Under the pieces are notes generated by a model. That model had not been told where the DNA came from. It saw nothing but the letters and a program-made list of their open reading frames with translations, and made no database searches. A DNA stretch of 5,473 bases. Origin: Clostridiales bacterium. Its GTDB lineage: Bacteria > Bacillota_A > Clostridia > Peptostreptococcales > Anaerovoracaceae. The translations under genes and the position numbers were made by a program. Location: NCBI GenBank assembly GCA_015058265.1, contig SVCR01000132.1:1-5473 (forward strand), read 5' to 3'. Of the stretch, positions 1-4,974 are shown piece after piece (the stretch's first letter is position 1; every line of letters begins with the position of its first letter).

Positions 1-361
1 CCTCTTCTGCACGTGCTCTGCAGCATGTGCATATTTTTCCTTCATCTGTGTATCCGGTGTCTCTGCATTTATTGCATCTGTACTTTCTGTCAAGATAGTC
101 CTCCGGATATCCGCTGCGGACAAGCAGCTCTCTCTTCCTGTCTTCCAGGTCCTGCCGTTTCTCCCTCATCCTGCGCCTGTTCTCCTTTGAATCCGGTCCC
201 GGCGCAAGACTTATCACTTTCCTGTTCAGCTCGTTTACAGCTGTATATATATCTCTCATTTCCGGGATCCTGAGATTGATCTCATCGATCCTGGCGTAAT
301 AATTCCGTTCTTCCTCTTCTCTCAGATACTCATAATAATCCTTCAGCACTTTGCGGCTGAC
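1..361 (-). other. DnaI/DnaC-loader-like N-terminal domain within the DnaD reading frame
   Basis: This is residues 341-460 of the fusion frame. It opens with VSRKVLKDYYEYLREEEERN, followed by RIPEMRD and a charged helix, then ELLVRSGYPEDYLDRKYRC. The cysteines are C436, C439, C451, C453 and C454, in the pattern CxxC-x11-CxCC, with DTGYTDEGKIC between the pairs. Clostridial DnaC/DnaI ATPases usually carry this arrangement just before their AAA+ domain, where the cysteines are thought to bind zinc and the domain to contact DnaB. There is no ATG near the junction; the GTG at residue 345 has no Shine-Dalgarno site before it, and the next Met (M355 region onward, at 259-257) falls inside the domain. 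That argues against a separately started loader gene. The Walker A and B motifs needed to prove a loader are not in the window. Confidence 0.7.
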
Positions 362-1381
362 ACGTGCGAGGCCGCTCTCATCCGCAGTGCTGCGGGCAGT
401 CTGACTCTGACTGTCTGTCTTCCTGTCCTGGGCGCTTCTGTATGAGGAAACTGATGTCTCCGCTCTTGTGTTGACGCCTCCCCGCTCGAGGACTTTGTTC
501 TCAAGAACTCTGTTTACGTATCTGAGGTTAGGATCTCTCAGGCCGGCCGCTGCCTTACATGCGTCGAGCACCTCCCCGATCGAGAAGCCCATCTCATCGA
601 ACCACTTGTCCATCATCTCTCTGTCAGACGGATTGGAAGGCCGGTTGAATCCCAGCGCGCTGAACACCTGTCTGTAAGCTTCGTTCCTCTTGCTGTTCCT
701 GTCCAGCATCATCTTGACCTGTGCCACATCACGGCATCCTTCTTCAGTCCATCTCAGCGCGACTTTGAAGATATAGTCCACACTGTATTTTTCGATCCCG
801 ATGCAGTAGTCGATGGCAAAGCCCAGTACGTCCGGTTCTATATTGAAATCTCTGACTGCCTCTGTCAGCTTGCGAGCCTCATGCCGCGATACCGTTCTGC
901 CTGTCAGATCCTGGTATTTATCGAACAGCTCCTTGAGCTGCCTGTTGACCATCCTTGCAATAACGGATTCTGCACTCTCTTCCGCAGCCACAGGATCTTC
1001 GCCGAACTGTGTCTGCATATTATCCGATGCCGGACCGACCGGGTATGACTCCTCTATCGTCTTTCCGTAGAAGAGATCTATCTGCTTGATGAATTCTACG
1101 CCTGTGTCTCCTCTGCTGTCCTCGGAAATAGACACGAGGCCCTTGGACTCCCAGTATTTCCAGGCATTATCGACATCCTTCTCTGTCATTCCGAGTGTAT
1201 GAGCGATGATCGCGGAATCGGTCTCCTGCTCATACTGAGCATACATCAGGCCGTAAAGGAACACTTTAACAAAGTCTCCCGGCGCATCCGGAAGGAATTC
1301 ATTTATAAAGAAGTTCTCTACTGTTGTACTGTAGAGAAATATGTCTTTTCTCTTTCCCGAAATGAATCTGGTCCTGCTCAT
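1..1381 (-). CDS. dnaD: DnaD-family primosome protein fused to a DnaI/DnaC-type helicase-loader N-terminal domain (3' end outside window)
   Basis: The frame is open for 460 codons from the ATG at 1381-1379 and has not stopped at position 1. Residues about 20-105 resemble the DnaD winged-helix domain (FFINEFLP, GDFVKVFLYGL, WKYWESKGLV). Residues about 137-215 and 236-305 look like two tandem DnaD/DnaB_2 repeats: the first has VDYIFKVALRWTEEG (201-215), the second GFNRPSNPSDREMMDKWFDE and then LRDPNLRYVNRVLENK. A Ser/Thr/Gln/Arg-rich linker (about 306-340) leads into a charged helical segment and a cysteine cluster typical of DnaI/DnaC loaders. DnaD proteins act in primosome assembly at origins or restart sites; DnaI-type loaders place DnaB on DNA. 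The gene starts 5 bases after the dnaB stop, with GGGGA 10 bases upstream of the ATG. Any AAA+ ATPase domain would lie beyond the window. The DnaD identity is firm; the fused loader is inferred. Confidence 0.85.
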   Translation of the reverse strand, partial: MSRTRFISGKRKDIFLYSTTVENFFINEFLPDAPGDFVKVFLYGLMYAQYEQETDSAIIAHTLGMTEKDVDNAWKYWESKGLVSISEDSRGDTGVEFIKQIDLFYGKTIEESYPVGPASDNMQTQFGEDPVAAEESAESVIARMVNRQLKELFDKYQDLTGRTVSRHEARKLTEAVRDFNIEPDVLGFAIDYCIGIEKYSVDYIFKVALRWTEEGCRDVAQVKMMLDRNSKRNEAYRQVFSALGFNRPSNPSDREMMDKWFDEMGFSIGEVLDACKAAAGLRDPNLRYVNRVLENKVLERGGVNTRAETSVSSYRSAQDRKTDSQSQTARSTADESGLARVSRKVLKDYYEYLREEEERNYYARIDEINLRIPEMRDIYTAVNELNRKVISLAPGPDSKENRRRMREKRQDLEDRKRELLVRSGYPEDYLDRKYRCNKCRDTGYTDEGKICTCCRARAEE

Positions 1382-1386
1382 TATCG

Positions 1387-2763
1387 TTAGATCCCCGGCT
1401 GCTCTGCCGCAAGGTTACCGAATTTTACATATCTCGGGACCCAAGCAAGCGTCGCCTGCCCTACAGGTCCGCTCCTATGCTTAGCTATATTGACAACGCA
1501 AGTCAGCCCTGTCGAAGCGTCCACCTGTGCTCGTTCATCTTCACTCTGATAGTAATCCTCTCTCTTGAGGAAGATGACGATGTCAGCATCCTGCTCGATA
1601 GCTCCGGAGTCTCTGAGGTCAGAAAGCTTAGGCATATGATCCCCGCCTCTCTGCTCCGGTGCTCTTGAAAGCTGTGACAGAAGTATGACTGCGCAATTCA
1701 GCTCTTTAGCCATGATCTTGATCGATCTGGTTATAGCGCCGATCTCTTTTTCTCTCTGTTCTATCCTGTATCCGCCCATACTCATCAGCTGAAGGTAGTC
1801 TATGATCACCAGATCAAGTCCGCCCTTCTCCTGGCTGAATCTGCGGCATTTGTTCTTCATCTCTACCGGTGTGATGGATGATGTCTCATCTATTACCATA
1901 TCCACACCGTAAAAGCTGTCCTGTGCTGCGCTGAGGCTCTCCCATTCATCCGCGTTTATATCGCCTTTGCGGATATTCTCAAGCGGAACACTCGATGTCA
2001 TCGACAGCAGTCTCTGTCCGAGCTGAAGATTAGACATCTCAAGACTGAAGACCATGACCTTGTGACCGACCGATGCGGCGTGTTCTGCTACGTTCAAGGC
2101 CCAGGCGGTCTTTCCTACACCCGGTCTTGCAGCAAGTATGATGAGGTCTGTCTTATGGAAGCCTCCGAGTATCCTGTCAACATCTCTGAAGCCTGTCTCT
2201 ATACCGTTGACCGCACCGCCGTTCTTCTCGAGTTCCTGGATCTCCTTGATGTTTTCGAACAGAACATCGTTGATATCAGTATAGTTACTCTTCTGGGTCT
2301 TCTGAGAGATCTCCAGTATCCTCTGCTCAGCCCTGTCAAGGATATCTTCAGGGGGCAGTTCATCCGAATAAGCGGATTCTCTGATCTTCTCCGCCTCCGT
2401 GATGAGCTGTCTCATTTTGGACTTATCCGCAACTATGTCAGCGTAATATTTCGCATTTGAAACGACGATGGTCTCATCCATCAGCTTGCTGAGGTATGTG
2501 ATCCCTCCGACCAGTTCAGCTGTTTTCTTCTGCTTGAGCGCGGAGTATACAGTTGTGATATCAACGCCTATAGACTTCTGCTCCATCTCGAGCATAGTCC
2601 TGTATATCTCCTGATGCTCTACGAGGCTGAAATCATCCGGTCTCAGTATACCGGAGACATCAGCTCTTGCGTCACGGCTCTTAAGCATCGCTCCGAGAAC
2701 AGCTTTCTCTGCCTCTATATCCTTAGGAGGTACAAGTATGTTGCTATTTCTTTCCTCGTCCAT
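1387..2763 (-). CDS. dnaB: Replicative DNA helicase DnaB
   Basis: This 458-residue protein has the normal length for the hexameric helicase that unwinds DNA 5' to 3' ahead of the replication fork and recruits primase (called DnaC in Bacillus subtilis). The N-terminal helical domain is at about 10-110 (VPPKDIEAEKAVLGAML, then VDITTVYSALK), a linker helix runs to about 180, and the RecA-like ATPase domain follows. Walker A is RPGVGKTA at 213-220 (K218, T219), the catalytic glutamate region is FSLEMS at 239-244 (E242), Walker B is LVIIDYLQLM at 318-327 (D322), and further core motifs are SQLSRAPEQR (363-372), LRDSGAIEQDAD (383-394) and the arginine-finger region KHRSGPVG (428-435). There is no intein or gap. 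The start is chosen because the family begins just before the VPP...EAE motif and the next Met (26) lies inside the domain. The gene sits between rplI and its likely loader. Confidence 0.97.
   Translation of the reverse strand: MDEERNSNILVPPKDIEAEKAVLGAMLKSRDARADVSGILRPDDFSLVEHQEIYRTMLEMEQKSIGVDITTVYSALKQKKTAELVGGITYLSKLMDETIVVSNAKYYADIVADKSKMRQLITEAEKIRESAYSDELPPEDILDRAEQRILEISQKTQKSNYTDINDVLFENIKEIQELEKNGGAVNGIETGFRDVDRILGGFHKTDLIILAARPGVGKTAWALNVAEHAASVGHKVMVFSLEMSNLQLGQRLLSMTSSVPLENIRKGDINADEWESLSAAQDSFYGVDMVIDETSSITPVEMKNKCRRFSQEKGGLDLVIIDYLQLMSMGGYRIEQREKEIGAITRSIKIMAKELNCAVILLSQLSRAPEQRGGDHMPKLSDLRDSGAIEQDADIVIFLKREDYYQSEDERAQVDASTGLTCVVNIAKHRSGPVGQATLAWVPRYVKFGNLAAEQPGI
1392..1396 (-). 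promoter_or_regulatory. Weak ribosome binding site of the DnaD-DnaI gene
   Basis: On the minus strand GGGGA lies 10 bases before the ATG at 1381 and is part of the last dnaB codons (Pro-Gly-Ile-stop). It is a poor match to AGGAGG and slightly far away. With only 5 bases between the dnaB stop and this start, translation is probably helped by ribosomes finishing dnaB. Confidence 0.4.
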
Positions 2764-2777: not shown

Positions 2778-3227
2778 CTATTTACCGCCTTCGATGCTTA
2801 CCTTGACCTTAGCGGAGATCTCCTGGAACAGCTTGATCTCAACTTCGGTTATGCCTGTCTCTTTGATCGGCTTGTCCAGAACGATCTTCTTGCGGTCGAT
2901 CTCGTTCCCCGTCTGCTCGCTTATCGCCTGAGCAATATCCATCGATGTAATGGATCCGAACAATTTACCGTTATCACCGACCTTGGTCTTGAGTACAACA
3001 GTCTTATTGCTCAGCTTATCAGCGAAAGCCTGTGCCTCAGCTCTGTCCTGAGCCAGTTTTTCTGCTATTTTCGCTTTCTCACGAGCTACAGCTCTCTTGT
3101 TTGCTTCTGTTGCTTCAACAGCAAGTCCGGCCGGGATCAGCTTGTTTCTTGCAAATCCGTCGCTGACTTTAACTATCTGACCTTCTTTGCCTGTGCCTTT
3201 AACGTCTTTCTTAAGAATTACTTCCAT
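2778..3227 (-). CDS. rplI: 50S ribosomal protein bL9
   Basis: This 149-residue protein has the usual bL9 length. bL9 binds 23S rRNA near the base of the L1 stalk and helps keep reading frame and 30S maturation accurate. The N-terminal domain (1-40) carries the family signature: MEVILKKDVKGTGKEG, then VSDGFARNKLIPAGLAVEAT. A long charged helix follows (about 41-74), then the C-terminal domain with GKLFGSIT (87-94) and VEIKLFQEISAKVKVSIE (129-146). The start is set at the ATG at 3227-3225, because it matches the family N-terminus and has AAGGAG seven bases upstream; a longer frame from 3254 would add nine residues (MIIWRRRIQ) foreign to bL9. The start overlaps the last 17 bases of the gdpP-like gene, and dnaB follows after 14 bases, the same gdpP-rplI-dnaB order found in many Bacillota. 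Confidence 0.97.
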   Translation of the reverse strand: MEVILKKDVKGTGKEGQIVKVSDGFARNKLIPAGLAVEATEANKRAVAREKAKIAEKLAQDRAEAQAFADKLSNKTVVLKTKVGDNGKLFGSITSMDIAQAISEQTGNEIDRKKIVLDKPIKETGITEVEIKLFQEISAKVKVSIEGGK

Positions 3228-4974
3228 TTGAATTCTCCTTCTCCATATAATCACTGACTATTTTGTGGAGTGCCTCTTCTACATATGAGAGCGGCTCATC
3301 TACCTGCGCGGCAGCTGATGTGAAGTGTCCGCCGCCGCCGAATTTCTCCATGATCGCCTGGACATTGACAGATCCGAGTGATCTTGCGCTGATAATGGTC
3401 TGGTTCTTCTCATTCGTTCCTATGACAAATGTGGCTTTGACCCCTCTGACCATGAGCAGCTCATCTGCGACCTGCGCGTTGATGATCTGTGTATTGCCCG
3501 TATGTCCTCTTGTAGCGGCATATGCTACTCCGTAGTCCTTAAAGTCCGCATGCGCTATCGCGCTGGCTTTGGACTTGAAATCCGTTATGTTCATCTGGAA
3601 GAACCGCTTGACTTCTGTTGTATCTGCACCTGCTCTCTTCAGCCATGATGCCGCCTCAAAAGTCCTTACGCCGGTCCTGCCTGAGAAGTTATTGGAGTCT
3701 ACCATTATTCCCGCGAGCAATGCCTCGGCTTCAAATTTGTTTATGAACCTCTTCTGCGCTACATTCTGCAGCAGCTCAGCCATCAGTTCGCTTGCCGATG
3801 ATGCATATGATTCGATATATGCAATAGATGCATTCTGGAATGAGTCCTCTGTCATTCTGTGATGGTCAATAATGACTCTGGATGCGCATTCGCTTACCAG
3901 CTCAGGACACTCAACGAGTCTTGGCCTGTTGGTATCGACGATTATCAGCAGCGTATCCGGAGTGACCATTTTCAGGGCTCTTTCCTGCTTGATGATATTG
4001 TAATCACCGGTATCAGCAGCCTGTTCATATATCGTGTCCAGAGCCTCATTATGCTTGTCGATGACTATGTATGCATCTTTACCGAGGTACTTGCATATGC
4101 AGTAGGCTCCGATCGCCGATCCGAACGAATCCATGTCCGGCCAACGATGTCCCATGATCAGAACTTTGTCCGCATCATGTATCATCGCCTTCATAGCATG
4201 AGCTATTACACGGGCCTTTCCTCTGTTGCTCTTCTCAATAGCCTGAAGAGTCCCTCCATAGTACTTAGTACCGTCATCATTCTTTACAACAGCCTGATCG
4301 CCTCCCCTGCCGACGGCCAGCTCTAATGCAGCTTCGGCAAGATCAGCTGATTCCTTCAGTGAGATCGCTGACATTCCTGCTCCGATACTTATTGATGCCG
4401 GAAAATCGATCCTGGATTCGATCCTTCTCACTTCGTCGAGTACGGAAAACCCGTTTTCAGCCATCGCTTCGAGCTTCTCATGATTCGTATACATGACATA
4501 TCTCTCATCATCAGTACTGATGACCGGAGAATCATATGAATCAGCCCATTTTCTGACTATCGAATCTATCTGCGAAGGCAGCGCGCGTCTGCCGTCCTCT
4601 CCTGTATTAGCTATGAGATCGTCGTAATTATCGATATTGATAAATACGATTACCGCTCTTTCCTTTTCGAGCTTGCTGCGGAAAGTTTCTCTGGCGGTGG
4701 CCTCATCGAAGAATACCGTGATATCCGCATCCTCTTTGACATCCTGATTGGTACGGATCTTGAATATCCTGTCGTTACGCTCGATTATCAGCTCATTCTC
4801 ATTGGCCCGGGCGAGATCATCGCGTCTTACCCCTGTCAGCGTAAAGAACTTGGAACCGACTATGTCTTCATAGACGAACACGTTTTTCATAAGCGGGTTG
4901 CTTTTGATAACGGTTCCTTCCTTGTCTACCACACAAGTAGGCAATGGAATCTGGTTTATATAGTTCTTTCTCAT
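3211..4974 (-). CDS. gdpP: GdpP-like c-di-AMP phosphodiesterase (PAS, degenerate GGDEF, DHH-DHHA1) without membrane helices
   Basis: This 587-residue protein matches the GdpP/YybT family, which hydrolyses cyclic di-AMP to pApA and so controls potassium, osmotic and cell-wall homeostasis. A PAS-like domain starts at once (IPLPTCVVDKEGTVIKSNPL, 9-28). A degenerate GGDEF domain follows at about 105-235 (VIVFINIDNYDDLI; STDDERYVMY where an active enzyme would have GGDEF). The DHH phosphoesterase domain has H276, D280 and D282 in GHRWPDMDSFGSAIGA, D347 in IVDTNRP, the D370-H371-H372 signature, SSASELM (392-398) and D426. The DHHA1 domain ends with EKFGGGGHFTSAAAQ (543-557). All catalytic metal ligands I can name are present. 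Standard GdpP is about 650 residues with two N-terminal transmembrane helices; these are absent here. The start has AGGGAG seven bases upstream and shares one base with the parB stop (TAATG), so there is no room for a longer N-terminus. Confidence 0.93.
   Translation of the reverse strand: MRKNYINQIPLPTCVVDKEGTVIKSNPLMKNVFVYEDIVGSKFFTLTGVRRDDLARANENELIIERNDRIFKIRTNQDVKEDADITVFFDEATARETFRSKLEKERAVIVFINIDNYDDLIANTGEDGRRALPSQIDSIVRKWADSYDSPVISTDDERYVMYTNHEKLEAMAENGFSVLDEVRRIESRIDFPASISIGAGMSAISLKESADLAEAALELAVGRGGDQAVVKNDDGTKYYGGTLQAIEKSNRGKARVIAHAMKAMIHDADKVLIMGHRWPDMDSFGSAIGAYCICKYLGKDAYIVIDKHNEALDTIYEQAADTGDYNIIKQERALKMVTPDTLLIIVDTNRPRLVECPELVSECASRVIIDHHRMTEDSFQNASIAYIESYASSASELMAELLQNVAQKRFINKFEAEALLAGIMVDSNNFSGRTGVRTFEAASWLKRAGADTTEVKRFFQMNITDFKSKASAIAHADFKDYGVAYAATRGHTGNTQIINAQVADELLMVRGVKATFVIGTNEKNQTIISARSLGSVNVQAIMEKFGGGGHFTSAAAQVDEPLSYVEEALHKIVSDYMEKENSNGSNS
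3235..3240 (-). promoter_or_regulatory. Strong ribosome binding site that fixes the rplI start
   Basis: AAGGAG lies seven bases before the ATG at 3227, inside the 3' coding end of the gdpP-like gene (the codons for its final Glu-Lys-Glu region). It is preceded by another GGAG. It supports the 149-residue rplI model over the upstream ATG at 3254. Confidence 0.85.

What the first reader, a model, noticed from the sequence alone, without database searches (positions are those of the whole stretch)
1..1381. DnaD primosome protein and DnaI/DnaC-type helicase loader joined in one reading frame
I translated the minus strand codon by codon from 1381 to 2 and met no stop. The protein passes from a winged-helix plus two DnaD repeats (residues 1-305) through a low-complexity linker (306-340) into a segment that looks like the N-terminus of a clostridial DnaC/DnaI loader (341-460), with the GYPEDYLDRKY and CxxC-x11-CxCC motifs. 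In most Bacillota dnaD and dnaI/dnaC are separate genes. A single chain would tie origin or restart recognition to DnaB loading, directly downstream of the helicase gene itself. If the loader is complete, I would expect about 650-680 residues in total; that size is an estimate from usual DnaC length.
Basis: partly seen in the sequence, partly recalled or inferred. Interest (0 to 1): 0.72.

Follow-up and report, generated by a model that had tools for sequence, protein, structure and literature searches.

The report
Motor-less helicase loader fused to DnaD
In one family of clostridia-type bacteria the replication protein DnaD carries the front end of the usual helicase loader, while the loader's ATP-driven motor part was not found in the genomes searched, which suggests that these cells put their DNA-unwinding ring onto DNA without that motor.

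Summary
The open frame is real: minus strand 1381 to 2, 460 codons, no stop, running off the contig. It is DnaD (winged helix, two DnaB_2 repeats) joined by a disordered linker to the N-terminal domain of the clostridial helicase loader with its four-cysteine motif. In 100 genomes of a related family, 99 carry the fusion in one frame (one is split by contig ends) and 0 of 100 have a full loader above the curated cut-off; DciA gave no hit in 99 sampled genomes of that family. In the order, 115 of 148 genomes have the full loader; in the 30 such loci examined, dnaD and the loader are adjacent, separate genes. So neighbours were fused and the motor lost. A second small family (4 of 4 genomes held) shows the same. 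Best reading: DnaD itself delivers and loads the helicase without a loader ATPase. Published work on E. coli DnaC (its helicase-binding domain alone loads DnaB) and C. difficile makes this plausible. Helicase binding by this domain is inferred, not shown, and a strongly diverged AAA+ loader cannot be excluded.

The parts
2..1381 (-). DnaD / loader-N-terminal-domain fusion, 460 codons, 3' end cut off by the contig end (the eight relatives read go on for 10-13 residues)
1067..1324 (-). DnaD winged-helix domain (DDBH1), about residues 20-105
   Evidence: AlphaFold elements; Foldseek list full of winged-helix proteins and B. subtilis DnaD N-terminal domain 2v79_B, all with weak E-values (2v79_B: 0.73); residue limits are mine
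713..925 (-). DnaB_2 / DDBH2 repeat 1, residues 153-223
   Evidence: Pfam PF07261; Foldseek 2zc2_A, E 0.11, TM-score by target 0.80
482..727 (-). DnaB_2 / DDBH2 repeat 2, about residues 219-300
   Evidence: second PF07261 stretch counted (limits not printed); helices 219-243, 251-263, 268-278, 286-300
374..478 (-). low-complexity linker, residues 302-336
   Evidence: pLDDT under 50; variable in alignment A1
2..361 (-). loader N-terminal (presumed helicase-binding) domain, residues 341-460: helical hairpin plus cysteine knuckle
   Evidence: NF005304 positions 7-119; hhalign of 34 tails against N-terminal domains of 20 separate loaders: probability 100, E 7e-41; AlphaFold pLDDT 95.8 for the complete domain of relative L101
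20..76 (-). four-cysteine motif C436-x2-C439-x11-C451-x-C453 (C454 next to it)
   Evidence: translation; the four cysteines are invariant in 32 of 32 rows of A1; motif in 50 of 50 distinct fusions and 30 of 30 separate loaders. Zinc binding itself is inferred
1387..2763 (-). replicative helicase dnaB, 458 aa, ends 5 bases before the fusion's ATG
   Evidence: TIGR00665, 482 bits against cut-off 385; ORF table
2778..3254 (-). ribosomal protein L9 (rplI), same order rplI-helicase-fusion as in L001 and L002
   Evidence: TIGR00158

Best explanation
It is a DnaD primosome protein that has taken over the N-terminal domain of the neighbouring loader gene (clostridial DnaC/DnaI type), in a lineage that lost the loader's AAA+ motor. 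SHOWN by sequence: adjacency of the two genes in relatives, fusion, truncation just after the cysteine motif, no full loader and no DciA found in the lineage at the stated sensitivity, and purifying selection on the tail. INFERRED mechanism: DnaA at oriC recruits DnaD; DnaD oligomerises and binds single-stranded DNA; the tail binds the C-terminal tier of the DnaB helicase and keeps or cracks the ring open (or helps subunits assemble) so that it closes round single-stranded DNA. No loader ATP cycle is used; release is driven by the helicase's own ATP and by primase. The missing AAA+ module would have been a lock or control part rather than the essential opener.
For: Domain make-up. In the family of L001, 99 of 100 genomes carry DnaD and the tail in one open frame: 94 have the tail match listed and the DnaD match in a frame of the same length at the same place, or one match over both, (G010 and G097, whose printed frame lengths differ between the calls, judged from coordinates; G015 cut by a contig end); G019, G054, G074, G094; G050; G028 is split by contig ends. 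Full loader over cut-off: 0 of 100 against 115 of 148 in the order by the same search; with all first-look candidates scored, 0 of 12 (three of them from the family) and 0 of 2. DciA: 0 of 99 genomes of the family (58 of them also) and 0 of 13 others; that search rings in 7 of 14 controls. DnaA: 40 of 41 (the one without, G042, may be incomplete). dnaD lies 2-22 bases upstream of the loader gene in 30 of 30 examined loci of 115 (start codons chosen mechanically). Tail dN/dS 0.04-0.10 in 5 of 11 pairs where dS could be computed. Second family: 4 of 4 with fusion, 0 of 4 with full loader, 0 of 4 with DciA. Passages read: E. coli DnaC helicase-binding domain alone loads DnaB at about half wild-type level and stimulates unwinding close to full DnaC (PMC8213410); C. 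difficile loader Walker A mutants still bind the helicase, and Walker A and B mutants give 2.5-fold more strand displacement than wild type without primase, read by the authors as ATP 'locking' the helicase (PMC5204125); DnaI N-terminal domains make most of the loader-helicase contact (PMC3791466).
Against: No experiment that I saw shows that this clostridial-type N-terminal domain binds helicase. Its profile found no convincing relative in the PDB and Foldseek gave no hit at E <= 0.001, so kinship to the B. subtilis DnaI N-terminal fold is open. NF005304 is a clostridial model: it is over cut-off in 0 of 14 control genomes, B. subtilis included, so a Bacilli-type or diverged loader would appear only as a sub-cut-off AAA+ match. 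At least 26 of 100 family genomes hold such a stretch in frames of 145-335 aa (list cut at 2e-16; one search shows a few more, e.g. G018, G023, G033); in the two neighbourhoods I read they look mobile (L017, L013; my reading of ORFs). Searches scored only up to 19 and 13 candidates per genome. PMC8213410 also says that the AAA+ domain raises loading efficiency, and the DnaC domain is not homologous to that of DnaI. PMC5109545 reports dna[CI], where found, in every species of an order, class or phylum outside two named orders, which this family contradicts. The window's own genome is not held.
Confidence: 0.6

Rival explanations
1. The fusion only recruits the helicase to DnaA or PriA sites (an adapter), and the helicase opens or assembles by itself; the tail does no ring opening.
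For: C. difficile helicase is described as ring-maker-like and partly self-loading, with primase as activator (PMC5204125 passages). DnaD is involved in helicase recruitment in B. subtilis and S. aureus (titles and abstract starts in listings).
Against: E. coli DnaC's helicase-binding domain alone does load DnaB, though that domain is not homologous to DnaI's.
Confidence: 0.2
2. An unrecognised ATPase (a diverged or Bacilli-type AAA+ protein, or loaders borrowed from mobile elements) still works with the fusion.
For: AAA+ DnaC-like stretches below cut-off in at least 26 of 100 family genomes; NF005304 would not put a Bacilli-type DnaI over its cut-off (controls).
Against: Patchy in the listing; G038, G067, G073 and G092 have only two matches each and G042 one, and for G038 and G073 the second lies in a DnaA-length frame; in the two cases examined the neighbours look mobile.
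Confidence: 0.12
3. One reading: a full DnaD-loader-AAA+ chain of 650-680 residues in this organism.
For: The window frame is open to the contig end.
Against: The 119 listed relatives, up to 64% identical, are 427-500 aa (120 of 386 listed); 49 complete fusions end 4-24 residues after the cysteines.
Confidence: 0.03
4. The tail is a decaying remnant of the lost loader gene without function.
For: It sits exactly where the loader gene once began.
Against: Cysteine motif in 50 of 50 fusions, dN/dS 0.04-0.10 in 5 pairs, tail kept in 99 of 100 family genomes.
Confidence: 0.05

Closest known systems
Clostridial DnaC/DnaI-type helicase loader (NF005304 / PRK06835; C. difficile CD3654, whose membership of this model I recall and did not test)
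   Same: N-terminal domain with CxxC...CxC, next to dnaD
   Different: No AAA+ domain, no Walker motifs, not a separate protein
DnaD (C. difficile CD3653 type, DDBH1-DDBH2-DDBH2; PMC5204125 passages)
   Same: Winged helix plus two DnaB_2 repeats
   Different: Carries an added loader domain at the C-terminus
DciA
   Same: Works (here by inference) without ATPase activity of its own
   Different: PF05258 not found in the fusion or in the sampled genomes of the lineage
Isolated helicase-binding domain of E. coli DnaC (laboratory construct, PMC8213410)
   Same: Loader reduced to its helicase-binding part
   Different: Man-made fragment of a non-homologous N-terminal domain; here natural and fused to DnaD
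Phage lambda P (PMC6391071 passages)
   Same: Helicase loader that neither binds nor hydrolyses ATP
   Different: Described there as unrelated to DnaC in sequence and structure; not compared with the tail here

Membership tests
DnaD primosome protein | DnaB_2 (DDBH2) repeats | tested here: met
   PF07261, 72.2 bits against cut-off 22, two stretches
DnaD primosome protein | N-terminal winged helix (DDBH1) | tested here: met
   AlphaFold elements, helices 20-79 then two strands; best Foldseek hit is a chain of a GlpD-DnaD model, 9a5c_B, E 4.7e-4 but rmsd 20.7; winged-helix proteins and DnaD 2v79_B follow at weak E; Pfam gave no hit over this part
DnaD primosome protein | binds DnaA and single-stranded DNA, oligomerises | not testable with these tools
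   -
DnaC/DnaI helicase loader | N-terminal helicase-binding domain | tested here: met
   Homology only: NF005304 positions 7-119, hhalign E 7e-41; helicase binding itself not tested
DnaC/DnaI helicase loader | C-terminal AAA+ ATPase domain with Walker A | tested here: not met
   Walker A pattern in 30 of 30 separate loaders and in 1 of 50 fusions (L120, residues 286-293, ahead of the loader domain). For the window itself inferred, since it ends at residue 460
DciA | DciA/DUF721 domain PF05258 | tested here: not met
   The window protein and two complete relatives have no Pfam hit but PF07261; 0 of 99 family genomes
B. subtilis DnaI N-terminal zinc fold | same fold as the solved DnaI N-terminal domain | tested here: inconclusive
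   No Foldseek hit at E <= 0.001, generic helical matches only; no convincing sequence hit in the PDB

The most novel reading that the evidence does not exclude
A whole bacterial family, and possibly a second one independently, loads its chromosomal helicase with neither an AAA+ loader nor DciA: the origin-binding adapter DnaD itself carries the ring-engaging domain, a further kind of chromosomal helicase loading that arose by fusing two neighbouring genes and discarding the motor.
Probability: 0.53. Interest if true: 0.85.

Novelty: new variant of a known kind. Interest (0 to 1): 0.72.

Why it matters
Bacteria are said to use either DnaC/DnaI (ATP-dependent) or DciA; the 2016 survey left 49 species with neither, most of them with small genomes or host-associated (PMC5109545, passages). 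This lineage appears to have neither and offers a concrete answer. It is a natural experiment on what the AAA+ motor of helicase loaders is for: if it can be lost in a whole family, it is a control or lock part rather than the opener. It also gives a single-chain system for studying how origin recognition is coupled to helicase loading.

Tried and rejected
Full three-part fusion: none among the 120 of 386 homologues listed (candidates could be up to 805 aa), none seen in the capped listings of the order and class samples, nor in 15 fetched regions: 3 are motor-less fusions, 11 have separate dnaD and loader, 1 (L147) has neither. The 724-aa open frame in G319 proved to be DnaD with an N-terminal extension next to an intact separate loader, and the 496-635 aa frames are DnaDs with extra repeats next to separate loaders. 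The class listing was cut, so weak fusions may be missed.

Number of origins of the fusion: the tree of the loader domain puts the two fusion families apart (supports 92 and 91 for the groups, 80-82 for branches between them); the tree of DnaD plus loader domain joins them with support 45. Unresolved. Half of the first family's fusions went into each tree (26 of 50 rows including the window); S2_L133, S2_L142 and F2_L156 were not in the second, L145 in neither.

PDB match for the tail: none convincing. The whole chain by sequence gave 12 matches at E <= 1, the best a CKK domain (0.057), the second DnaD-like 2zc2 (0.08).

Five order genomes (G138, G144, G146, G160, G184) have no fusion, full loader, DnaD-profile or DciA hit; I cannot say whether they are incomplete or odd. 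The order and DciA samples were drawn without a completeness limit.

Not found in print: searches listed no paper that describes this fusion. There I saw titles and starts of abstracts only, and the library holds open-licence papers only. PMC2673437 is not held.

Full report
OBSERVATION. The minus-strand frame 1381..2 is open for 460 codons and runs off the contig. It follows the replicative helicase gene (1387-2763, TIGR00665) by 5 bases; upstream lie rplI, a GdpP-like gene and a ParB/Noc-like gene. Pfam sees two DnaB_2 stretches; NCBIfam adds the first third of the loader model NF005304 at residues 344-455.

WHERE THE CHAIN ENDS. A search of the large protein collection gave 386 proteins at E <= 0.001; the 120 listed, the window's own included, have 427-500 residues and cover 94-100% of the query. 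The eight relatives that I read go on for 10-13 residues past the end of the window frame. From loci I extracted 50 distinct fusions including the window: lengths 391-501, the four-cysteine motif in 50 of 50, and in the 49 others 4-24 residues after the last cysteine pair. The Walker A pattern occurs in 30 of 30 separate loaders and in 1 of 50 fusions, there ahead of the loader domain. So the protein is DnaD plus a loader N-terminal domain, without motor.

IS THE MOTOR ELSEWHERE? The window's genome is not held, so I used the family of locus L001 (a Bacillota MAG, 41% identical in the best segment); on trees the window falls inside the group of that family's fusions, nearest to L102. In 100 genomes (asked for at completeness 90 or more; the tool prints no values) NF005304 gave 0 full loaders over cut-off. 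94 show an N-terminal-only match in frames of 352-510 aa in that listing; G019, G054, G074 and G094 show the fusion and G050; G028 is split between contig ends. As a control the same search in the order found a full loader in 115 of 148 genomes at 216-430 bits. The 33 without are 24 members of that family's sample, four further genomes that carry the fusion (G109, G120, G131, G201) and five with no hit of either kind. DciA gave no hit in 99 genomes of the family (58 of them shared, no completeness limit) and none in 13 others, while 7 of 14 control genomes ring. DnaA is there in 40 of 41.

LIMITS OF THAT ABSENCE. NF005304 is over cut-off in 0 of 14 control genomes, B. subtilis among them, so loaders of another type show only as weaker AAA+ matches. 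Such matches in frames of 145-335 aa occur in at least 26 of 100 family genomes (cut listing; one search shows a few more). The two neighbourhoods that I read look like an integrative element and a phage replication module (my reading). G038, G067, G073 and G092 have only two NF005304 matches and G042 one; G042 also lacks a DnaA hit and may be incomplete. A loader of another type in every member is thus unlikely but not excluded.

HOW IT AROSE. In 30 of 30 loci with a full loader that I examined (the best-scoring 30 of 115), dnaD lies directly upstream of the loader gene with a gap of 2-22 bases, the loader N-terminal domain matching the tail of the fusion profile. Profile comparison of 34 tails with 20 loader N-terminal domains gives probability 100, E 7e-41. 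Fusion of neighbours plus loss of the motor explains this. In a class sample of 393 genomes, whose listing was cut, three more fusions turned up (G298, G323, G346); their family has four genomes held at that completeness, all four with the fusion, none with a full loader or DciA. Whether that is a second origin is unresolved: groups apart with supports 92 and 91 on the loader domain, together with support 45 on both parts.

IS THE TAIL WORKING? dN/dS of the tail is 0.04-0.10 in the five of eleven close pairs where dS could be computed (in four of the five dS is over 1.2, and two of the pairs share a row); for the DnaD part it is 0.02-0.06 in the five pairs where that could be computed, so the tail is constrained but somewhat less. 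AlphaFold gives the complete tail of L101 (61% identical to the window's) a confident helical hairpin with a cysteine knuckle, pLDDT 95.8; in the full chain the linker 302-336 has pLDDT under 50. No solved structure matched the tail convincingly, so its kinship to the B. subtilis DnaI zinc fold is neither shown nor excluded.

MECHANISM. Known, from passages read: E. coli DnaC's helicase-binding domain alone loads DnaB at about half wild-type efficiency and stimulates unwinding at a level close to full DnaC, while the AAA+ domain raises loading efficiency (PMC8213410); C. difficile loader Walker A mutants still bind the helicase, and Walker A and B mutants give 2.5-fold more strand displacement than wild type without primase, which the authors read as ATP locking the helicase (PMC5204125); the DnaI N-terminal domain makes most of the loader-helicase contact and is not homologous to that of DnaC (PMC3791466); DnaC, DciA and lambda P share the LH-DH site on DnaB, for DnaI this is only predicted (PMC9912922); lambda P neither binds nor hydrolyses ATP (PMC6391071). 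That DnaD binds DnaA and single-stranded DNA I take from titles and abstracts in listings. Inference: the fusion brings the helicase-engaging domain to DnaA-bound origins on DnaD and loads without a loader ATPase. Shown here: architecture, gene history, absence of alternatives at the stated sensitivity, and purifying selection. Not shown: binding, ring opening, essentiality.

NAMING. Two of the nearest proteins carry the source name 'DnaD domain protein [Mogibacterium sp.]' (P0015, P0023); NCBI places Mogibacterium in Anaerovoracaceae, Peptostreptococcales, Clostridia.

VERDICT. Observation confirmed; interpretation half right. By membership it is a DnaD with a loader domain, not a DnaC/DnaI loader (AAA+ not met) and not DciA; it probably works like a motor-less loader.

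Noticed in passing
L133 (G319), minus-strand frame: A 714-aa protein with DnaD in its C-terminal part and about 400 N-terminal residues without any Pfam hit at E <= 0.01, directly before an intact separate loader gene.
   Followed up: partly
Genomes G138, G144, G146, G160, G184 (order sample): No hit for fusion, full loader, DnaD profile or DciA; incomplete genomes or another arrangement.
   Followed up: partly
L137-L142, L144-L146 (class sample): DnaD proteins of 496-635 aa with extra DnaD-like repeats beside separate loaders.
   Followed up: no
L145, minus strand: Loader gene whose N-terminal domain is split between two overlapping frames (222 and 402 aa), perhaps a frameshift or assembly error.
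   Followed up: no
L017 (G039) and L013 (G098): DnaC-like AAA+ proteins inside what look like an integrative element and a phage replication module, in genomes without a full housekeeping loader over cut-off.
   Followed up: partly
window 3211-3254: The GdpP-like frame and the rplI frame as listed overlap by 44 bases; rplI may really start at an ATG further in.
   Followed up: no
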